22,675 bases of DNA. Source: a virus. Below the pieces are notes generated by a model that worked only from the letters and a program-made list of their open reading frames with translations, did no database searches and was not told the DNA's origin. Shown here piece by piece: positions 1,261 through 22,152 of the stretch. Each line of letters opens with the position of its first letter. Position 1 is the first letter of the stretch. Made by a program: the position numbers and the translations under genes. The stretch spans positions 1-22,675 of IMG/VR virus record IMGVR_UViG_3300041809_001444, one strand, 5' to 3'.

Positions 1261-1653
1261 ATGGCCGATTTCGGCGGATTGATCCGCTTCACTTACAACG
1301 CGACGCCGATGAAGATCCGGGCGCGCGTCACCATCGAGCCGACCGGCGGCGACTACAAGGCCGAGGACAATCAGGACGGCAGCTTCGACCGCTACTACCA
1401 GCCGATGGGGCCGAAGTTCGACCTCGAATTCGTCGACTCGGCCGACGGCGTCAGCGCCAAGTCGCTGCCGTGGGACGCGATCATGGCCGGCGGTCCTTAC
1501 AACATCTCGATCGTCGAGGACTCGAACAGCGTGTTGCATACGTTCACCGGCTCCAAGTTCATCGGCCGGCCGAAGATCGACCGGCTCAAGGGCCTCGTCT
1601 CCGGCGTCACCGGCCAGTGCCCGGTCGGCGGCTACCAGCAGACGGCGACGTAA
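1261..1653 (+). CDS. Phage tail tube protein (Mu gpM-like)
   Basis: This 130-residue protein should polymerise into the inner tail tube inside the sheath. Its short, beta-rich sequence begins MADFGGLIRFTYNATPMKIR and ends in a segment carrying QCPVGGYQQTAT, consistent with the Mu-like tail tube family. The start at 1261 is chosen because AAGGAG lies at 1249-1254, six bases upstream. An in-frame ATG at 1231 lies inside the palindromic repeat and has no such signal. The gene sits directly between the sheath and the tail assembly chaperone, the standard position, with only three bases to the next start. Confidence 0.87.
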   Translation: MADFGGLIRFTYNATPMKIRARVTIEPTGGDYKAEDNQDGSFDRYYQPMGPKFDLEFVDSADGVSAKSLPWDAIMAGGPYNISIVEDSNSVLHTFTGSKFIGRPKIDRLKGLVSGVTGQCPVGGYQQTAT

Positions 1654-1656
1654 GCG

Positions 1657-1965
1657 ATGGCGACGAAGGACGTTCCCCTGTCGACGCCAATCGCTTGGGC
1701 CGGCAAGAAGCTTGCCGCCGTCTCGCTGCGCGAACCAAATGGCCAGGATTTCTTCGACCTCGGTGAGCCGAAGATCATGGTCAGGATGCGCGACGGCGGC
1801 TTCTATTTCATCGAGCAGGAAGCGGTGATCAAGGCCTATCTCGAACGCTGCCTCACCCACGAGGCGCACGGCGCTTTGCTACCGCTGCTGAGCCTCGCCG
1901 ACGCGCGCGAGGTTAAGGACGCGCTGTTCGATTTTTTCCACGCGGCGCCGGCGACGCCTTCCTGA
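1657..1965 (+). CDS. Tail assembly chaperone, zero-frame product (Mu gp41-like)
   Basis: This is a 102-residue protein in the position of the lambda G / Mu gp41 tail assembly chaperones, which coat the tape measure during tail building and are absent from the finished virion. The sequence around VSLREPNGQDFFDLGEP matches the general style of Mu gp41-like proteins. The ORF starts three bases after the tube gene. Near its 3' end, in phase, is the slippery heptamer T TTT TTC at 1932-1938, after which this frame runs only 27 more bases to TGA. A minority of ribosomes should shift there to make a longer product. The role follows from motif, position and frameshift architecture together. Confidence 0.85.
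   Translation: MATKDVPLSTPIAWAGKKLAAVSLREPNGQDFFDLGEPKIMVRMRDGGFYFIEQEAVIKAYLERCLTHEAHGALLPLLSLADAREVKDALFDFFHAAPATPS
1932..1938 (+). other. Programmed -1 ribosomal frameshift site
   Basis: The heptamer T TTT TTC is in the reading phase required for simultaneous P- and A-site slippage (codons GAT TTT TTC from 1930). The -1 frame becomes open only after a TAA at 1914-1916, so any shift must happen between that stop and the zero-frame TGA at 1963-1965; the heptamer lies in this short interval. After slipping, CCA at 1938 is read and the frame stays open to TAG at 2085-2087. A GC-rich segment (GGCGCCGGCGACGCC) follows and could form a stimulating structure. Such frameshifts between tape-measure chaperone genes are conserved in tailed phages, including Mu. 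Confidence 0.85.
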
Positions 1966-2087
1966 CGGCGCTCGGCGACCTAGTCTTCAAGTTGAGACTG
2001 GTCGCGCTCGACGCCGCCGCCGCGAAACCGATCTCCGAACTGCTGGCGCTGCACCGCTTCGCCGCAGGAACGATGCCAAAGAGGTAG
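1938..2087 (+). CDS. Tail assembly chaperone -1 frameshift extension (T-like)
   Basis: This -1 frame adds 49 codons after the slippery site, giving a fusion of about 143 residues (94 from the zero frame plus 49). The added part reads as plausible protein, including AFLTALGDLVFKLRLVALDA and ISELLALHRFAAGTMPKR, with amphipathic helical character. It has no convincing start codon or ribosome binding site of its own, and its TAG ends one base before the tape measure ATG at 2089. By analogy with lambda gpGT, the extension should bind the tape measure or recruit tail tube subunits. Too short to be obvious as a free-standing ORF, it would be missed by routine annotation. Confidence 0.82.
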   Translation, partial: PRGAGDAFLTALGDLVFKLRLVALDAAAAKPISELLALHRFAAGTMPKR

Positions 2088-2088
2088 C

Positions 2089-3879
2089 ATGGCCGTCCTT
2101 GAGTCACGCCTCGTCATCGCCGGAGACGACCTCACCGGGCCGATGTTCGCCTCGATCCAGGCGAAGATGGACGCGCTGGATGGCCGCATCGGCACGATCA
2201 ACGCGACAATTGGCCGGATCGGTGCGGCGACCAAGCCGCCTGCGGTGGTGCAGGACACAACGAAGGCGGTCGACGACGCCAAGGCCAAAACGCAGGCCGC
2301 TTCCGGCGGCATGCTGAACGGCCTCGCCGGCTTTGTCGCCGCGATTACCGGCTTCGAAGTGGTGACGGCGGCGTGGGAGCAAAAGGCCGAACAACTCCAC
2401 GAAGAGATGCGCCAGAAGCTCGCCGCGATGAGCCCCGAGGAGATCGCCGAAGGCGAGAAGATCGGCGCCGACATTGCGTCGCACTACCCGAGCGTGGCGC
2501 AATCCGACGTTATGCACACGCTGCGCAGCGTGCGCACGGTGACCGGCTCCTACGACGAGGCGAAGGGCCTCGTGGAAGACATCACGAAATTACGCACCAT
2601 CGCCCAGGCGGCCAATCCCCAAGCGTCGCCCGAGCAGATGACCGAAGAAATGGACAAGCTGATCAAGGCGATGGAAATCGCCGGGGTGACCAACGACCCG
2701 GTCAAGTTTGGCCGGTACATCAACGACATCGCCAAGGCGTTGAACGCCTTCGGCGATCAGTTGAAGCCCGAAGATTATTTTGAGCAGTTGCGCTACGCGC
2801 GCGCCGCCGGGCAGACGATCTCCGAACGCTTCCTGATGACGACCATGGCGACGCTCGGAACCGAAGTCGGCGGCCAGTCGATCGGCACGGCGGTGGCGGC
2901 GTTTAACCAAGCCTTGGTTGGCGGCCGGATGACGCACCAGGCTGCGCTCGGCTTCGCTGATCTCGGCCTAGTGAACGACGAAGACTTGCTGCGCACCAAG
3001 ACAGGCGAGGTCAAGGGGGTCAAGCGCGGTTCGCACGTCAAGGATTGGCGGCTGGCGCAGAGCGACCCTGATTTGTGGATCAAGCAAGACTTACTGCCGG
3101 CGCTGGCGGCCAAGGGCGTCACCGACCCGGCCGAGATCCAGTCGGCGATCAGCCAGTTGTTCTCCAACCGGCTCGCCGCGCAGCTGGCGTCGATGATCGC
3201 CAACCAGCCGGTCAAGCTGGAAAAGAATGCGAAATTGTGGTCGGACGCATCGGGCAAGGAGTCCGCCGACACACTGACGCGCGGCGACCCTTACGCTGCT
3301 CGGAAGGGCGCATTGAACACGCTGACGCGCGGGCTCGCCAAGATCATGCCGGTGCAGGAGGCGACGGACGTCAGCGCGGCGGTGTCGATGTCGCCGGGGG
3401 AAGCGGCTTTTCCGTGGCTTGGCGCGCCGGATGAGGTGCACACTTCGAAAGGGTCGGTGTCCAGATCCGATGTGCTCGGGGCGTTGAAGGATGGGTGGCG
3501 GGCGCTCCTCGGCGAGATCCAGATCGGGCCGCCGCAGATCGGCGGGTCGGGGCAGGCGTGGCAGAACGACATTCACGCCTATCAATCGCTCTACGGCGCA
3601 GGCTATCGCAACGGCGACCTCGAGGCCGAGGAAGCGCGCGAGCGCTCGCGCGGGCTGGCGATGGGCGGCGCGCACGGGCCGCTCGATGTGACGGGCAAGG
3701 TGACGCTCGACCCGAACTCGAAAGCCGAGGTCGACGTCAACGTGCATGTCGAGACCGACTCGCTGCTGAAGTTTGTCGCCGACGCGGTGGCGACCGCGAC
3801 CGGCAATCTCGCCGCCCATGTCGGTCGCATGGACACCGACGCCTCGCCTCGGCGTTCCGGTGGCATCGGGCATATGTGA
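2089..3879 (+). CDS. Tail tape measure protein
   Basis: This 596-residue protein sits directly after the chaperone pair, where the tape measure is always found. Its helix-rich N-terminus (ASIQAKMDALDGRIGTINAT) and hydrophobic glycine-rich segment at about residues 75-95 are typical. Such proteins set tail length and may leave with the DNA on injection. At roughly 1.5 angstroms per residue, general for the family, the tail would be around 90 nm. AGAGG at 2080-2084 precedes the ATG. The middle and C-terminal parts (Gly/Asp/Arg-rich from about residue 480) contain no enzyme domain I recognise. The stop lies five bases from the end of the converging reverse-strand gene. Confidence 0.85.
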   Translation: MAVLESRLVIAGDDLTGPMFASIQAKMDALDGRIGTINATIGRIGAATKPPAVVQDTTKAVDDAKAKTQAASGGMLNGLAGFVAAITGFEVVTAAWEQKAEQLHEEMRQKLAAMSPEEIAEGEKIGADIASHYPSVAQSDVMHTLRSVRTVTGSYDEAKGLVEDITKLRTIAQAANPQASPEQMTEEMDKLIKAMEIAGVTNDPVKFGRYINDIAKALNAFGDQLKPEDYFEQLRYARAAGQTISERFLMTTMATLGTEVGGQSIGTAVAAFNQALVGGRMTHQAALGFADLGLVNDEDLLRTKTGEVKGVKRGSHVKDWRLAQSDPDLWIKQDLLPALAAKGVTDPAEIQSAISQLFSNRLAAQLASMIANQPVKLEKNAKLWSDASGKESADTLTRGDPYAARKGALNTLTRGLAKIMPVQEATDVSAAVSMSPGEAAFPWLGAPDEVHTSKGSVSRSDVLGALKDGWRALLGEIQIGPPQIGGSGQAWQNDIHAYQSLYGAGYRNGDLEAEEARERSRGLAMGGAHGPLDVTGKVTLDPNSKAEVDVNVHVETDSLLKFVADAVATATGNLAAHVGRMDTDASPRRSGGIGHM

Positions 3880-3884
3880 TGCGG

Positions 3885-4298
3885 TCAGGGGGTCGCAAGC
3901 CAGGGCTTGGCGCCCGCGGCGCGCTCGTCGTGTGCCGCTCCGGCCGGCGCGAACGCCGCGCTCGCCGGACGCGCCGCCGCGACGGGCGGCCGGGACGGCT
4001 CCTCGACGTCTCGCGCCGTGGCCAGGGTGCGGCAATGCGGGCAGATCGTCGCCTCGGCGCGGATGAACTCGCGACAGGCGGGGCAACGCGTTTCGCCGCG
4101 CGCCGCGGCGTCGCGTTCAGCGCGGGCGACCAGGGCGTCGCCGTTCGGCTTCGAGACGATGGCGACCGGCAACGCGATCGGAAAGAACAACGCGCCGGCG
4201 AGCCAGTTGAGCCAGAAGGAATAACCTTTGTGAAATTTGATCGTCGCCGGAATCAATCCGAGCAGGATCAGCAGACCGAAGGCGTCATCCGGTTGCAT
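3885..4298 (-). CDS. Two-TM zinc-ribbon protein, reverse-strand moron candidate
   Basis: This 137-residue protein is encoded opposite to the tail genes around it. Two hydrophobic segments at about residues 7-20 and 29-48 suggest a small inner-membrane protein. A zinc-ribbon-like quartet follows (Cys72, Cys75, Cys86, Cys89, in RCPACREF and ICPHCRTL), then a Pro/Ala-rich tail. The start at 4298 has GAGGAG eight bases upstream; a longer ORF from 4364 lacks this. It is strongly preferred over the plus-strand ORFs here because of its coherent membrane and cysteine motifs. Its function is unknown. An isolated reverse gene between tape measure and circularization genes looks like a moron that may be expressed in the lysogen. 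Confidence 0.75.
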   Translation of the reverse strand: MQPDDAFGLLILLGLIPATIKFHKGYSFWLNWLAGALFFPIALPVAIVSKPNGDALVARAERDAAARGETRCPACREFIRAEATICPHCRTLATARDVEEPSRPPVAAARPASAAFAPAGAAHDERAAGAKPWLATP

Positions 4299-4364
4299 CG
4301 CGATCGCTCCTCGGCGAGCGCCGCGCTCTCGGCGCAGCGGCGCCGCAGCCGCGGAGACTAGCAC

Positions 4365-4838
4365 ATGCGCGACTGGATGGCGACGCTGTGGCCGGCCTCG
4401 TTCATGGGCGTGCCGTTCTGGGTCGAGGACGACGGCGCGACGACCGGCCGGCGCGTGTCGACGACGTCATTTCCGGGGGTGGACGAACCTTTCAACGAGG
4501 ACCTCGGCCGCAAGGCGCGATATATCGAGATCAGCGGCTATTTCATCGGCGACGTCTCGGACGGCCAGATGACGGCGCTCGAGGCGGTTTGCGACGGCGT
4601 TTCGACGGCGGGCACGCTGGTGTTGCCGGCGCAGGGGCCAATTCAGGCGCGCTGCGAAGACATCAAGCGGAATCGCAAGCGCGACAAGATGGGGCGGTTC
4701 GGCTTCACCGCCAAGTTCGTCCGCGAGGGGCTCGGGTCGCCGCTGGCGCCGAGCGAATTTCTCGCCCAACTCGCCTTCGACGCCGTTGGCGCGCTGACCG
4801 CAGCCGCGCCGGCGTTCTTGAACGGAGTCGGGCTGTGA
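4365..4838 (+). CDS. DNA circularization protein, N-terminal half (Mu gpN-like)
   Basis: This 157-residue ORF carries the complete N-terminal domain of the Mu gpN / DNA circulation family. Hallmarks are MRDWMATLWPASFMGVPFWV at residues 1-20, FPGVDEPFNEDLGRKARY at about 36-53 and EISGYFIGD at about 55-63. The family links tail and baseplate assembly to DNA circularization in Mu-like phages. GGAG at 4353-4356 precedes the ATG by eight bases. Full-length relatives continue into a helical C-terminal region, but here TGA follows FLNGVGL, and the continuation appears in another frame after a palindromic repeat. The half could work as a separate subunit paired with the next ORF, or be a fragment of a broken gene. 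Confidence 0.85.
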   Translation: MRDWMATLWPASFMGVPFWVEDDGATTGRRVSTTSFPGVDEPFNEDLGRKARYIEISGYFIGDVSDGQMTALEAVCDGVSTAGTLVLPAQGPIQARCEDIKRNRKRDKMGRFGFTAKFVREGLGSPLAPSEFLAQLAFDAVGALTAAAPAFLNGVGL

Positions 4839-4850
4839 CGGCGAACCAAG

Positions 4851-4900
4851 ACGTGGATGGCCGGGTCAAGCCCGGCCATGATGGGCGATGGCGGGAGAAG
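4851..4900. repeat. Palindromic intergenic element splitting the circularization gene
   Basis: A perfect nine-base-pair palindrome, ATGGCCGGG at 4857-4865 and CCCGGCCAT at 4871-4879 with loop TCAAG, sits within the flank ACGTGG...ATGATGGGCG. It resembles the abundant short palindromic elements of Bradyrhizobium-like genomes (RIME-type), though I cannot confirm the exact family. It lies between two ORFs that together look like one DNA circularization protein. The purine-rich right flank (GGGAG at 4893-4897, AAGGGGAG at 4898-4905) supplies the ribosome binding site of the second half. The outer limits given are approximate. Confidence 0.75.
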
Positions 4901-4905
4901 GGGAG

Positions 4906-5715
4906 ATGAGCCGGCCAAGCTGGATCGCCGCCAACGTCGTCGACGGCCTGCAGGGGATCGTCGCGCAGATCGAGGCGGTCTTCAACGCATCGACGGTCGA
5001 CGCGGCCAAGGCGGCGGCGATTTCGGTCGCTATCGCCACCGACCCGGCGCCGAGCGCCTCGACGCCGGCGACGACCGCCAACGTGACCGGCCTGATGACG
5101 GCGCTGATCGCGCTCTACAACGCGATTCCGTTCCTGGTCGAGCCGGGGATCGGCGTCGACCCGAGCGTGTCGCGAGGGCTGATCGCGCTCGCCTGCGGCC
5201 TCGCCGGTGCGATGGCGCCCGACGATGCAGCCGCGGCCTTCGCGCAAGCGGTCGACCTGACCGCCGACGCAACGCCTTCGCCGACCTCGACGCCGAACCG
5301 GCTGACCGACGCGGCGAACGCCGAGATCGTGGCGCGGTTTGCGCGGATGGTCTATCTCGCCGCCTACACCGAGGCGCTGGTCCTGTCGACTTACGCCACG
5401 CGCGCCCAGGCGATCACCGCGCGCGCCGATTGCGTGCAGCGGTTCGAGCGCGAGCTCGACCTTTGCGGCTTCGCCCGCGACATCGGCGTCGCGACGGCGC
5501 TGACCGCGATGCGCGACCGCTGCGTCGCCTATCTGACCCAGGCGATCATCAATGCGACGCCGGTGCTAACCGTCTCGGCGCCGATCGCCCTGCCGGCGTT
5601 GTGGTGGGCATGGCGGCTCTATCAGGACCCGACGCGCGCCGCGCAGCTGATTAGCCGTAACGACGTGCCGACCTGCGAATTCATGCCGATCCAGTTCGAA
5701 GCGCTGGCGGCGTAG
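4906..5715 (+). CDS. DNA circularization protein, C-terminal half (Mu gpN-like)
   Basis: This 269-residue, alanine-rich helical protein has no enzymatic motif. It matches the C-terminal region of gpN-like proteins by position, by helix-rich composition and by its ending (TCEFMPIQFEALAA), which resembles the usual gpN-type close. The start at 4906 (MSRPSWIAANVVDG) is chosen because GGGAG lies eight bases upstream; the in-frame ATG at 4888 falls within the repeat flank. Read as protein, FLNGVG at the end of the previous ORF joins naturally to RPSWIAANV here. The two ORFs total about 426 residues, a plausible full-length protein. The baseplate hub gene starts nine bases downstream. Confidence 0.7.
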   Translation: MSRPSWIAANVVDGLQGIVAQIEAVFNASTVDAAKAAAISVAIATDPAPSASTPATTANVTGLMTALIALYNAIPFLVEPGIGVDPSVSRGLIALACGLAGAMAPDDAAAAFAQAVDLTADATPSPTSTPNRLTDAANAEIVARFARMVYLAAYTEALVLSTYATRAQAITARADCVQRFERELDLCGFARDIGVATALTAMRDRCVAYLTQAIINATPVLTVSAPIALPALWWAWRLYQDPTRAAQLISRNDVPTCEFMPIQFEALAA

Positions 5716-10930: not shown

Positions 10931-13159
10931 ATGAAATCCTTCGGTCTTCAGCGCATGGGCGCCGCGCTCGCGCTCGCCTTCTTGTTCACATTCCCCGCCG
11001 TGGCGCAGGAATCGCGGGCGAGCCTCGTCGGCGACGACAACGCGTCGATCGCCAATTGCCCGCCCGGCGCGCCGCGATGTCTCACGCCGTCGCGGGTCAA
11101 CGGATTCCTGCAGCGGCTGATCGCCAGCGTCGGCACGCTGCTCGACGCCAACGAATGGGCGCAGGCCCAGAAGTTCGACGCCAACCCGATCTTCGTCGGC
11201 TGCGCGGGCTATTTACTCGGCAACGGCGCCAGCCCGGCGAGCTGCGCGCTGAAGATCCCGGCGGGCGGCCTGCCGCTCGGCGTTTCGGTGGTTGATCCCG
11301 GCGACGGAACGCTCGAGGCCGTGCTGCCGGTGCAGAGCGTCGCCGGCGCGACTTACGGCTTCGCCAGCGGGGATCTGTTCAAGAAGACGCGGCGGTCGAA
11401 CGCCGGCGTGGCGATGGCGGACACGCTGCTGGCGGCGACCGTCCTCGACATGGTCAACGGCGCGCGGGTCGACGTCGCCAATGTCGACGCCACCGCCGCC
11501 GATGCGTTGACCGCCGGCGCGGGGACGGCGATCGCCGCGGGCTGCGCCAACGTGCCGCCCGGCCGCGACGTGATGCTGGTCTACGATCTGCCCAACGCGA
11601 CCTGGCGCGGCGACGGCAACAGCTGCACGGCGCTGCTTTCGGTTCCGGCGCCGACCTCGTCGTCGCTCGGCGGCGTCGAGAGCGACTCGTCGGTCGCGCA
11701 CAACTGGATCGCCTGGATCGACTCGTCGGGCATACCGCACCAGAGCCAGCCGGCGTTTTCCGACATCTCCGGGTCGGTCGCGCCGAGCCAGTTGCCGGCG
11801 CCGACCTCGTCGTCGCTCGGCGGCGTCGAGAGCGACTCGTCGGTCGCGCACAACTGGATCGCCTGGATCGACTCGTCGGGCGTTCCCCATCAGAGCCAGC
11901 CGGCGCTCGGCGACATTTCCGGTTTTGGCGCTGGAGTGCCGACGGCGCTGGCGCAGCCGGCCAACGGTGCCAACGGCGTGCCGGTCGAGACCAACGCGCC
12001 GGCGGCCGACGAAGACTTCATCGACGACGCCTGGACGGCGATCCCGAACTGCGCGAGCGCGATCACCTATTCGACCTCGACGCATCTGTGGGGTTGCAAC
12101 GCCGGCCTCGGCACCGGCAACGTCTCGAACAGCGGCACGCCGGCCGCCGGGCAGTTGCCGCTGTGGGTCTCGGCGACGGCGATCGATGGCGTGACGCTCG
12201 GCGCGAACGTCCTTTCGGCGTTGGAGACGGCGGAGAACGGGACCGGCGCTTTCGCCGGCACCAACTCGCCGGCCTTCACCGGCGCGCCGTCCGCGCCGAC
12301 GCAGAGCACGGCCGACAATTCGACCGATCTGGCGACCGACCAATACGTTCACAACGTCGTCAACGCGCTTCCCGCGGCGGCGCCGGCACCGTGGTCGATC
12401 ACCGGCTGTCTGCCGTTGGCGATGTCCGGCGCGAACAACACCGCCGCGATCTCCATCGGCGCGTGCACGGCGGCCGATCAGAGCGACACCGCGACGATCG
12501 GTTGGACCGCCTCGAAGTCGTGGGCGGTCGCCAATGGCAATGCACCCAACGGCTATGCCGGTGGCGCGACGCTGCCGAACTCCTCGACGATCCATGTCTA
12601 CGACTGCCATGGGGCGAGCGGCGATACGAGCTACGGGTCGACCACCGCGCCGGGCACCTTCGAGCCGTCGAACTGCCCCAGCGGCTACACCACCAATGCC
12701 CGGCGCATCTTTTCGTTCGTGACGACCAGCGCCGGAGCGCCCCAGGCCTTCGTCGCCGACGAGGTCGCCGGCGGTGGCTACATCGCCTACCTGGCGTCCG
12801 CAGTGTTCGACTTGAACGGGGTCACCCCCCCGAGCGCAAACCGAACGCTCTACACGCTCAGCGTCCCGACCGGGATCAAGGCTGAGTGGAATGGGCGATA
12901 CTACGCTCACTACAATTCGGCGGCCGAAACATTCCTGGTGACATCGCCTGATGAGGCGGATGTTGCCGCCGGGACTTACAACATAGCGCCCGGACAAGAC
13001 GTCAACGCGTCAAGTGGCGCACCGATCAACTCCCTCCAGCCCGGAGGCCCGCGCCGCATTCTCACCAACACGGCCGGTCAACTCGGCGTGCGCTCCGGCG
13101 CCGCCAACGGGATGTTCTACCTCGACACGACGGCCTTCGGCGACGCGCGCCGCAGCTAA
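10931..13159 (+). CDS. Tail-fibre-like protein with signal peptide
   Basis: This is a 742-residue repetitive protein. Residues 1-25 form a textbook Sec signal peptide (MKSFGLQRMGAALALAFLF, then AVA before Gln26), and ATG 10931 is chosen for this reason; no strong Shine-Dalgarno sequence is visible and the frame is open further upstream. Residues about 239-338 hold two near-identical 50-residue repeats with SSSLGGVESDSSVAHNWI, a motif type known from phage fibres. The C-terminal region (SPDEADVAAGT, then RILTNTAGQLGVRSGA) resembles the receptor-binding end of fibre proteins of Rhizobiales prophages. It either binds the host as a fibre or is exported as a surface adhesin. Signal peptide and fibre architecture together are unusual. 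Confidence 0.75.
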   Translation: MKSFGLQRMGAALALAFLFTFPAVAQESRASLVGDDNASIANCPPGAPRCLTPSRVNGFLQRLIASVGTLLDANEWAQAQKFDANPIFVGCAGYLLGNGASPASCALKIPAGGLPLGVSVVDPGDGTLEAVLPVQSVAGATYGFASGDLFKKTRRSNAGVAMADTLLAATVLDMVNGARVDVANVDATAADALTAGAGTAIAAGCANVPPGRDVMLVYDLPNATWRGDGNSCTALLSVPAPTSSSLGGVESDSSVAHNWIAWIDSSGIPHQSQPAFSDISGSVAPSQLPAPTSSSLGGVESDSSVAHNWIAWIDSSGVPHQSQPALGDISGFGAGVPTALAQPANGANGVPVETNAPAADEDFIDDAWTAIPNCASAITYSTSTHLWGCNAGLGTGNVSNSGTPAAGQLPLWVSATAIDGVTLGANVLSALETAENGTGAFAGTNSPAFTGAPSAPTQSTADNSTDLATDQYVHNVVNALPAAAPAPWSITGCLPLAMSGANNTAAISIGACTAADQSDTATIGWTASKSWAVANGNAPNGYAGGATLPNSSTIHVYDCHGASGDTSYGSTTAPGTFEPSNCPSGYTTNARRIFSFVTTSAGAPQAFVADEVAGGGYIAYLASAVFDLNGVTPPSANRTLYTLSVPTGIKAEWNGRYYAHYNSAAETFLVTSPDEADVAAGTYNIAPGQDVNASSGAPINSLQPGGPRRILTNTAGQLGVRSGAANGMFYLDTTAFGDARRS
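11645..11905 (+). repeat. 150-base tandem repeat within the fibre gene
   Basis: Bases 11645-11731 recur exactly at 11795-11881, an 87-base perfect direct repeat with a 150-base period (50 codons). After a nine-base variable patch, a further 15 bases are again identical (11741-11755 and 11891-11905). Both copies encode PAPTSSSLGGVESDSSVAHN followed by WIAWIDSSG. Exact identity at synonymous positions points to recent duplication or gene conversion. Recombination between copies would add or remove one 50-residue module in frame, a plausible route to fibre length variation. Confidence 0.92.
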
Positions 13160-14284: not shown

Positions 14285-14412
14285 CGCCGTTCCGCCGCGT
14301 CGAGCTCGCGCTCTGCGCTCTCTGCGCTCTCGCCGCACTGTTTCGCGTGCCCGGCGCGGCGCTCGCCGCCGTCGCCGCAATCGTCGCGCTCGAACTGATG
14401 AGGATCATGTGA
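14281..14412 (+). CDS. Tiny two-TM protein, holin candidate
   Basis: The 43-residue ORF starts with GTG, overlapping the preceding stop (GTGA), and its own stop overlaps the amidase start (TGATG). Two hydrophobic stretches, residues 8-22 (ELALCALCALAALFR) and 25-40 (GAALAAVAAIVALELM), suggest a small hairpin membrane protein with a basic N-terminus. Adjacency to an endolysin and translational coupling at both ends make a holin or pinholin the leading guess, but the protein is very short and lacks any recognised family motif. It could also be a tiny accessory membrane protein. Confidence 0.5.
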   Translation: MTPFRRVELALCALCALAALFRVPGAALAAVAAIVALELMRIM

Positions 14413-15206
14413 TGACGCTTCAACTGCCGGCGCTGACCTGGCGCGCCTCGCCGAATTATTCCTCGCGCGGCGGCCAGCGCGTCCGCCTGATCGTCGCTCA
14501 TGATTGCGAAGGTTCGTTCGGCGGGTCGGTGTCGTGGTTCGCGATGGCGAAGTCGCAAGTCAGCGCCAACCTCGTGCTCAGCGACGACGGCCGGCAGGCC
14601 GTGCAGATGGTCGCGTGGGCCAACAAGGCCTGGCACGCCTGCAACTTCAACCCGTTCTCCGAAGGGATCGAGGCGGCCGGCTATGCGGCCAAGGGCCTCG
14701 GCGCGCCGGAATGGGCGGCGCTGGCGGCGATCGTCGCCTTCCGCCTGCGCGCCAACGGCATCCCCTGCCATCGCGCCAACGCGGCGAACGATTGGACCGG
14801 CTATTGCGAGCACGTCGAGCTCGGCGTCGCCGGCGGCGGCCATCACGACATCACCGCCGACCCGGCGGTTCAGGCGCAATTCGACGCGCTGGTGCGCGCC
14901 GCCTTTGCTCAAGACATGCCGGCGTCGTTCCCGGTCGCCGGCGCGCCGACGGCGATCCCCGCTGCGCCGGCCGACTGGAAGCCGGCCGGCACGACGCGTC
15001 ACGACCTGGTCGCCGGCTCGCTCGAATGGACGCAGGCCAAGCTCAATGCGCTCGGCGCGCCGACCGCGCCGTTGATTGTCGACGGCCTCGACGGCCCGGC
15101 GACGCGCGGCGCGATCAGCAAATTCCAGCAGGCGCACGGCCTGTACATCGACGGCGACGCCGGCGCGCAGACGATCGCCGCGCTCGAGGAGGCGACCGGC
15201 GCATGA
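14412..15206 (+). CDS. N-acetylmuramoyl-L-alanine amidase endolysin
   Basis: This 264-residue protein combines an Amidase_2-type (T7 lysozyme/PGRP-like) catalytic domain and a C-terminal peptidoglycan-binding domain. Catalytic features include RLIVAHDCEGS with His30, GRQAVQMVAWANKAWHAC, a central CHRANAANDWTGYCEHVE, and GGGHHDITADP at residues 141-151, which carries the second zinc-ligand region. The C-terminal part (about 200-260), with VDGLDGPATRGAISKFQQAH, is a classical PG_binding_1 repeat. The enzyme should cleave the bond between MurNAc and the stem peptide during lysis. There is no signal peptide, so release would depend on a holin, which fits the coupled small TM gene upstream. It overlaps the next tiny ORF by four bases. 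Confidence 0.87.
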   Translation: MTLQLPALTWRASPNYSSRGGQRVRLIVAHDCEGSFGGSVSWFAMAKSQVSANLVLSDDGRQAVQMVAWANKAWHACNFNPFSEGIEAAGYAAKGLGAPEWAALAAIVAFRLRANGIPCHRANAANDWTGYCEHVELGVAGGGHHDITADPAVQAQFDALVRAAFAQDMPASFPVAGAPTAIPAAPADWKPAGTTRHDLVAGSLEWTQAKLNALGAPTAPLIVDGLDGPATRGAISKFQQAHGLYIDGDAGAQTIAALEEATGA

Positions 15207-15292
15207 TCGCCGGCTTTGGCGCGCTCGCCGTCGACGCGCCGCTGATCTGGCCGGCGTGGCTGCCAGCGACAGGCAAGGACAACGCGAAATGA
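15203..15292 (+). CDS. Tiny ORF bridging amidase and phosphorylase genes
   Basis: A 29-residue ORF starts within the amidase stop (ATGA at 15203) and ends by the same four-base overlap with the phosphorylase ATG at 15289. It reads MIAGFGALAVDAPLIWPAWL and then a short polar tail. It is mildly hydrophobic but probably too short for a stable TM protein. The overlaps at both ends favour real translation or a leader-type link, though it may simply keep ribosomes engaged. Function unknown. Confidence 0.35.
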   Translation: MIAGFGALAVDAPLIWPAWLPATGKDNAK

Positions 15293-15951
15293 AAACCGCC
15301 GTCGTTGTCGGGATGCAGAGCGAAGCCAACATCGTCGGCCAGCGGCCGGATACGGTCGTCATCGTCGGCGCCGGCGATGCGGCCAAGCTGGCGGCCGATC
15401 TGCAAGCCGCCATCGCCGGCGGTTGCGACCGCGTGCTCAGCTTCGGCACGTGCGGCGCGCTCGATCCCGTCCTCGAGGCCGGAGCGATCGTCGTCGGCTG
15501 GTCGATGACCGGGCCGGCCCTGACGATCCCGTGCGACCGCGCGTGGGCGTCGAGCCTGGCGGCGGCGACTGGCGGAAGGGTCGTCGTCGCCACGGTTGCG
15601 ACATCGACCGTGGCGACGGCCGCCGACAAAGCGGCTCTGTTCGCTCAGACCAAAGCCTGCGTGGTCGACTTCGAATCCTATGTCGCCGCGCGCGTCGCCT
15701 GGGACAAACGCGTCCCGTTCGCCATGTTGCGCGCCGTATCGGACACGGCCGACCAGGACATTCCCCCCGCCGCGCTGACGGCGCTCGACGCGGGCGGCGG
15801 GATCGACGTCTGGGCGGTGATCGACTCGCTCGCCGGCGACGACGCGCAACTGCCCGCGCTGCTGCGCCTGGCGGATTCCTCGACGCTTGCATTCAACGCG
15901 CTGGCGAAGGCGCTCGCCGACGCGGGCGTGGACTACGGCGAAACGGCGTAG
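15289..15951 (+). CDS. Nucleoside phosphorylase/nucleosidase-like enzyme
   Basis: The 220-residue product looks like the PNP/UDP phosphorylase superfamily, closest in feel to MTA/SAH nucleosidases and the hopanoid-associated phosphorylase type. Visible motifs are GMQSE at 8-12 (Glu12 in the catalytic position), FGTCGALDPVLEAGAIVVG at 52-70, CVVDFESYVAARVA at 124-137 (usually D-M-E in the family) and RAVSDTAD at 148-155 with the expected catalytic Asp152. The enzyme would act on a nucleoside N-glycosidic bond, but substrate cannot be told. Its location between the amidase and membrane genes of a phage lysis cassette is unusual. A strong hairpin follows the stop codon. Confidence 0.75.
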   Translation: MKTAVVVGMQSEANIVGQRPDTVVIVGAGDAAKLAADLQAAIAGGCDRVLSFGTCGALDPVLEAGAIVVGWSMTGPALTIPCDRAWASSLAAATGGRVVVATVATSTVATAADKAALFAQTKACVVDFESYVAARVAWDKRVPFAMLRAVSDTADQDIPPAALTALDAGGGIDVWAVIDSLAGDDAQLPALLRLADSSTLAFNALAKALADAGVDYGETA

Positions 15952-21148: not shown

Positions 21149-21312
21149 GCGTCGGCGCGGATTGACTTCGCCCCACGCAAGCGGGGCCGGCGGCGTTGGC
21201 GCGCCGCCTGCTGCGGGGACCTCGGGAAGGCGTCCCGCCCGGCCGGTCTCACGAGGCCGCCCGCTGCACGCTCTTGTCGAGCGCGGGCGGGACAATCGTG
21301 GAAAACCCCTCA

Positions 21313-22152
21313 ATGGAAGGTTATCGCCGGGTCGCGCCGATGCGGCCTGTCGCGCCGTATGTCGGCGGCAAAAAGCAGCTCGCGGCGCGGCTGGTCGCGC
21401 TGATCGAACAGGTTCCGCATGCGACTTACGCCGAGCCGTTCGTCGGCATGGGCGGCGTGTTCCTGCGTCGATCGGTCGCGCCGAAGGCGGAGGTGATCAA
21501 CGACGCCTCAGGCGACGTGGCGAACCTCTTTCGCATCCTGCGCGAGCACTATTCGCCGCTGATGGATCTGCTGCGCTTCACCTTCGCGGCGCGGCGCGAT
21601 TTCGAGCGGCTTCTGGCGACCGACCCGGCGACGCTGACCGACCTGCAGCGCGCCGTGCGCTTCCTCTATCTCCAACGCCTCGCCTTCGGCGGCAAGGTCG
21701 CCGGGCGCAATTTCGGCGTCTCGCTGCGCATGCCCGGTCGCTTCGACGTGACGCGGCTCGAGCCGATGCTGGCCGAGCTTTCCGAGCGGCTCGCCGGCGT
21801 GGTGATCGAGAACCTGGACTATGCCGAGTTCCTCGATCGCTATGACGCCGACGACACGCTGTTCTACCTCGACCCGCCCTATTTCGGCTCGGAAGACTAT
21901 TACGGCAAAGGGCTGTTCGGCCGCGACGACTTCGGCCGGCTGGCCACACGCCTGGCCGCGTTGCGCGGGCCGTTCATTCTGTCGATCAACGACGCGCCGG
22001 AAGTCCGCGTCCTCTTCGCCGCCTTCGCGCTCGAGGCGGTCGAGCTGAGCTATACGCTGCCCGGCTCGGACGCCGCCCAGGACGTGCGCGAGCTGATCGT
22101 CACCCCGCGCGGCCTGCCGCGGACGGAGCGGGCGGCGACGCTGTTCGATTGA
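21313..22152 (+). CDS. Dam-type D12-class DNA adenine methyltransferase
   Basis: This protein of 279 residues has the D12-class N6-adenine methyltransferase layout: YVGGKKQLA at residues 16-24, the AdoMet motif AEPFVGMGGVFL at 40-51, and the catalytic DPPY at 187-190 inside TLFYLDPPYFGSEDYY. It should methylate adenine in DNA; the recognition site is unknown. The start at 21313 (ATG) is used because there the conserved region begins; an in-frame GTG at 21298 is an alternative, and neither has a strong ribosome binding site. A solitary phage methylase can protect against restriction or alter regulation, as no restriction partner is visible. The 164 bases upstream hold a GC hairpin (21189-21208) but no promoter that I can recognise. 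Confidence 0.9.
   Translation: MEGYRRVAPMRPVAPYVGGKKQLAARLVALIEQVPHATYAEPFVGMGGVFLRRSVAPKAEVINDASGDVANLFRILREHYSPLMDLLRFTFAARRDFERLLATDPATLTDLQRAVRFLYLQRLAFGGKVAGRNFGVSLRMPGRFDVTRLEPMLAELSERLAGVVIENLDYAEFLDRYDADDTLFYLDPPYFGSEDYYGKGLFGRDDFGRLATRLAALRGPFILSINDAPEVRVLFAAFALEAVELSYTLPGSDAAQDVRELIVTPRGLPRTERAATLFD

What the first reader, a model, noticed from the sequence alone, without database searches (positions are those of the whole stretch)
1932..2087. Programmed -1 frameshift yields a tail assembly chaperone fusion
A canonical T TTT TTC heptamer sits in correct phase near the 3' end of the gp41-like gene. The -1 frame is closed just upstream (TAA 1914-1916) and then stays open for 49 codons to TAG 2085-2087, one base before the tape measure start. 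The added reading frame has no start or ribosome binding site of its own, yet encodes plausible protein. This reproduces the conserved G/GT architecture of tailed phages, and standard ORF calling would miss the fusion.
Basis: partly seen in the sequence, partly recalled or inferred. Interest (0 to 1): 0.72.

Follow-up and report, generated by a model that had tools for sequence, protein, structure and literature searches.

The report
Phage tail-chaperone ribosomal frameshift, ordinary kind
An uncultured phage very likely makes two versions of a tail-building helper protein from one gene by having some ribosomes slip back one base at a run of six T's, a trick already known from many tailed phages such as lambda and P2.

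Summary
[quoted passage not shown] The -1 frame is closed at TAA 1914 and runs open to TAG 2085-2087, one base before the tape measure ATG (2089). The open -1 frame alone means little: 78% of such stretches are open in this 69% GC window. Conservation is decisive. All five IMG/VR relatives found have an in-phase T TTT TTC/T at the same codon and a 49-53 codon -1 extension ending just before the tape measure gene. Ten of 13 named phages, P2 included, have the same T-run; an eleventh has G GGT TTT; Mu and SfMu lack it (Mu is known to use -2). Outside these genes an in-phase T6 occurs once in 23,320 codons. Between the window and its nearest relative only the -1 frame shows purifying selection (pN/pS 0.23, against 1.7 and 3.1). 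Four relatives have no ATG, GTG or TTG in the -1 open frame, which speaks against separate initiation. Product and efficiency are unmeasured.

The parts
1657..1965 (+). zero-frame tail assembly chaperone (G-like, Mu gp41/P2 E-like), 102 aa
   Evidence: ORF; PF10109 Phage_TAC_7 E=8.4e-4, below the curated cut-off; phrog_24302 E=1.7e-11; predicted fold matches Mu FS-gp41, Foldseek prob 1.00, E=2.6e-3
1932..1938 (+). slippery heptamer T TTT TTC, in phase for a -1 shift (P-site TTT, A-site TTC)
   Evidence: conserved in relatives
1914..1916 (+). TAA that closes the -1 frame upstream of the site
1938..2087 (+). -1 frame extension (T-like domain), 49 codons and TAG; read only after the shift
   Evidence: conserved in L002-L006 and named phages; pN/pS 0.23
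1657..2087 (+). predicted fusion product (GT-like), 143 aa, by -1 frameshift at 1932-1938
   Evidence: translation of the fusion; inferred product, not detected
1941..2005 (+). possible downstream stem-loops starting about 3 nt after the site; optional stimulator
   Evidence: fold z -2.07 here and -3.68 in L002, but +0.9 and +0.4 in L004 and L006: not conserved
1261..1653 (+). tail tube gene upstream (context)
   Evidence: phrog_185 E=0.003 and position after the sheath gene
2089..3879 (+). tape measure gene downstream (context)
   Evidence: 596 aa, by position only (no family match); same place as annotated tape measure genes in PPF1, RR1-A, P2, Mu

Best explanation
[quoted passage not shown] Most ribosomes read 1657-1965 and make the short chaperone (102 aa). 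A minority slip back one base while the two Phe tRNAs sit on TTT TTC, and continue in the -1 frame to 2087, making a 143-aa fusion. By analogy with lambda gpG/gpGT, the common part should bind the tape measure protein and the -1 domain should recruit the tail tube protein, with the ratio of the two set by the slip frequency. Shown by sequence: heptamer, phase, frames, gene order, conservation, selection in the -1 frame. Inferred: slippage itself, its frequency, and the roles of the two products.
For: Exact heptamer in phase. In-phase T TTT TTC/T at the same conserved codon in five relatives from other metagenomes, each with a -1 extension of 49-53 codons ending 3-30 nt before the tape measure gene, while the zero-frame tails differ in length (8-31 codons) and sequence. 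The first Phe codon is TTT in all six although TTC is preferred 114:20; the search patterns were peptides back-translated with degeneracy, so they did not select for TTT. In-phase T-run and open -1 extension in PPF1, RR1-A, yong2, PG1, SfII, phiAP1, BgVeeders33, BZS1, ST64B and P2; in P2 the frameshift is annotated in the record. Background: one in-phase T TTT TT in 23,320 codons of the other genes of these loci. Selection: -1 frame pN/pS 0.23 against 1.66 and 3.06 in the other frames; 15 of 24 differences at -1 third positions, p=0.003. The window's extension scored above all but 1 of 2,000 shuffles against a profile of the other extensions. Fold of the zero-frame protein matches Mu FS-gp41.
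Against: No product has been measured. The Pfam match is below its curated cut-off. No named family matches the extension. The profile-profile match of the extension to other extensions is moderate (probability 62%). No conserved downstream RNA structure. An open -1 frame is common by chance at this GC.
Confidence: 0.95

Rival explanations
1. Transcriptional slippage: RNA polymerase slips on the T run, so that a fraction of mRNAs lack or gain a base and encode the fusion in frame.
For: A homopolymer run is present; 7 T in L003, PPF1, RR1-A, phiAP1, ST64B and 8 in yong2.
Against: The run is only six T in the window and most relatives, shorter than usual for polymerase slippage (own knowledge). 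phiKM1 has only five T behind GGG yet keeps a tandem-slip heptamer (G GGT TTT), and X always sits at codon position 3, the phase that ribosomal tandem slippage needs. P2, with T TTT TTG, is annotated as translational.
Confidence: 0.03
2. The -1 frame is a separate small gene, started after the chaperone stop by reinitiation or from an unusual start codon.
For: The window has TTG 1992 and ATG 2073 in this frame.
Against: L003, L004, L005 and L006 have no ATG, GTG or TTG in their -1 open frame, and conservation of the frame begins at the heptamer, before any usual start.
Confidence: 0.01
3. Sequencing or assembly error in the T run: the gene is really one frame, or the extension is a decayed remnant.
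For: The window is a single metagenomic contig.
Against: The same two-frame arrangement in five other assemblies and in ten or more sequenced phages; purifying selection in the -1 frame.
Confidence: 0.01

Closest known systems
Phage P2 E / E+E' (-1 frameshift at T TTT TTG; PF10109)
   Same: T TTT TTN heptamer in phase, position between tube and tape measure genes, extension of similar length
   Different: zero-frame protein only 14% identical; last base of the site is C, not G; high-GC context
Rhizobium phages vB_RleM_PPF1 and RR1-A tail assembly gene
   Same: closest named phages by tail sheath (40-41% identity); in-phase T7 run; -1 extension up to the tape measure start
   Different: 27% and 26% identity of the chaperone; the extension is not annotated in these records
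Phage Mu gp41 / FS-gp41
   Same: gene order sheath-tube-chaperone-tape measure; predicted fold of the zero-frame protein
   Different: Mu uses a -2 shift (PMC5009743, PMC2628397) and has no in-phase -1 T-run there
Phage lambda gpG / gpGT
   Same: logic: short chaperone and rarer -1 extended form before the tape measure gene (PMC5009743)
   Different: different slippery site (own knowledge); siphophage; homology not tested

Membership tests
Frameshifted tail assembly chaperones of tailed phages (G/GT kind) | lies between major tail/tube gene and tape measure gene | tested here: met
   same order in annotated relatives
[quoted passage not shown]
Frameshifted tail assembly chaperones of tailed phages (G/GT kind) | second frame open from the site to about the tape measure start, lacking its own start | tested here: met
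   the late ATG at 2073 could not encode the extension, and TTG 1992 only part of it
Frameshifted tail assembly chaperones of tailed phages (G/GT kind) | conservation of site and second frame across relatives | tested here: met
Frameshifted tail assembly chaperones of tailed phages (G/GT kind) | two products in a fixed ratio, both absent from the virion | not testable with these tools
   needs protein experiments
Pfam PF10109 Phage_TAC_7 (P2 E, Mu gp41) | score above the curated cut-off | tested here: not met
   19.8 bits against 25; 9 of 15 aligned homologues match at E<=0.01, so a divergent relative rather than a formal member
Mu gp41 -2 frameshift | shift into the other alternative (+1/-2) frame, conserved there | tested here: not met
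   that frame happens to be open at the end of the gene (stops only at 1826 and 1889), but shows no purifying selection: pN/pS 3.06

The most novel reading that the evidence does not exclude
The phage group uses an added stimulator to set a ratio suited to its tail: for example the AAGGA about 12 nt upstream (in the window, L002, L004, L005 and L006) acting as an internal Shine-Dalgarno-like pairing site as in dnaX, or a lineage-specific GC-rich hairpin just downstream.
Probability: 0.12. Interest if true: 0.25.

Novelty: new member of a known kind. Interest (0 to 1): 0.15.

Why it matters
It confirms that the conserved G/GT frameshift extends to an uncultured phage group whose nearest named relatives are Rhizobium phages PPF1 and RR1-A, with a P2-type -1 site in a Mu-like tail module. 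Practically, of the 13 named phage records examined only P2 has the joined product annotated, so gene callers commonly miss the extension.

Tried and rejected
Two scans of bacterial genomes found no relative, and tblastn of three chaperone sequences found nothing among phage records; anchoring on the sheath and baseplate genes worked instead. Downstream RNA structure: stronger than shuffles in the window, L002, L003 and RR1-A, absent in L004, L006 and PPF1, so not claimed as conserved. No Rfam match. No sequence relative in the PDB: the hits (collagen, urokinase) are chance; no PDB fold match. Upstream AAGGA is conserved in five of six but encodes the conserved Lys-Asp pair, so protein conservation explains it equally well. 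The length of the open -1 frame was rejected as evidence in itself. The fusion protein was not modelled, because it is not a straight translation of the DNA.

Full report
What was checked. The window is a 22,675-base virus record of IMG/VR, 69% GC. Its first genes are tail sheath (phrog_165), tail tube (phrog_185, weak), a 102-codon gene at 1657-1965 and a 596-codon gene at 2089-3879 in the place of the tape measure. The heptamer T TTT TTC at 1932-1938, its phase, the upstream TAA at 1914-1916, the 49 open codons and TAG 2085-2087 are exactly as described.

Chance. The run is the only T6 in the window. Phe is encoded by TTC in 85% of cases and Asp by GAC in 79%, so GAT TTT is a rare choice (about 3%). 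In contrast, 49 open codons in the -1 frame are expected in 78% of cases in this window, so openness is not evidence. In 23,320 codons of other genes of the window and ten phage loci, an in-phase T TTT TT occurs once.

Relatives. Searches of viral contigs gave five relatives of 31-77% identity. In L002, L004, L005 and L006 the site is T TTT TTC and in L003 T TTT TTT, always at the same Phe-Phe and in the same phase. The -1 frame then runs 49-53 codons and ends 3 to 30 bases before a start in the tape measure position, while the zero frame ends 8 to 31 codons after the site with dissimilar tails. Four of the five have no ATG, GTG or TTG in the -1 open frame. L004 and L005 are near-identical and should count as one lineage.

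Named phages. Anchoring on the sheath and baseplate proteins led to Rhizobium phages PPF1 and RR1-A and more distant phages. Reading the stretch between chaperone and tape measure, an in-phase T TTT TTN is present in PPF1, RR1-A, yong2, PG1, SfII, phiAP1, BgVeeders33, BZS1, ST64B and P2. phiKM1 has G GGT TTT. In these eleven the -1 frame stop lies between 30 bases before and about 14 bases after the tape measure start. Mu and SfMu have no -1 site, in agreement with the -2 shift reported for Mu (PMC5009743, PMC2628397). KS10 is reported to lack a site (PMC2628397), so the device is not universal. Only P2's record annotates the joined product.

Selection. Between the window and L002 the 150 aligned bases after the site differ at 24 places, 15 of them third positions of the -1 frame (p=0.003); pN/pS is 0.23 in the -1 frame, 1.66 in the zero frame and 3.06 in the remaining frame. 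The extension is therefore very probably translated and kept. It ranks above all but one of 2,000 shuffles of itself against a profile made only from the other extensions.

What the protein is. The zero-frame protein matches PF10109 (P2 E, Mu gp41, '14') below its curated cut-off; nine of 15 aligned homologues match that family. A confident model (mean pLDDT 89) matches Mu FS-gp41, a Burkholderia tape measure chaperone and unnamed phage proteins in BFVD (probability 1.00, E about 0.002-0.005), and nothing in the PDB.

Mechanism. In lambda, gpG and the rarer gpGT made by a -1 shift both bind the tape measure protein, and the T part recruits the tail tube protein; in P2 the shift is two- to threefold more frequent (PMC5009743). 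The anatomy here fits that scheme step by step. Slippage, its frequency and the binding roles are inferred. Stimulators are uncertain: hairpins occur about 3 bases after the site in the window and L002 but not in all relatives, and the upstream AAGGA coincides with a conserved Lys-Asp.

Verdict. Observation confirmed, interpretation supported, ordinary in kind. The only twists are that the site is P2-like although the gene order is Mu-like, and that the extension is missing from nearly all annotations examined.

Noticed in passing
3885-4364 (-): A reverse-strand gene with a zinc-ribbon motif (PF13248, weak) is wedged between the tape measure and the next baseplate gene; a similar sequence is at the same place in L002 (about 5214-5610). 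It looks like a cargo (moron) gene.
   Followed up: partly
4365-5715: Two adjacent genes (4365-4838 and 4888-5715) match the front and back parts of one family (phrog_184, baseplate hub): the Mu N-like gene appears split in two, as it also seems to be in PPF1 and L002.
   Followed up: partly
1168-1230: Short direct repeats of GGCAGT(C/A) in the gap between sheath and tube genes, of the kind seen in bacterial intergenic repeats.
   Followed up: no
11645-11931: Tandem duplication of a 137-nt stretch (91% identical, spacing 150) in a long gene with no Pfam match.
   Followed up: no
15181-15951: A phosphorylase-superfamily protein (PF01048, E=1.5e-9), unusual next to the amidase (probable lysis) gene at 14409-15206 of a phage.
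   Followed up: no
21196-22152: D12-class adenine DNA methyltransferase (PF02086), possibly for modification of phage DNA.
   Followed up: no
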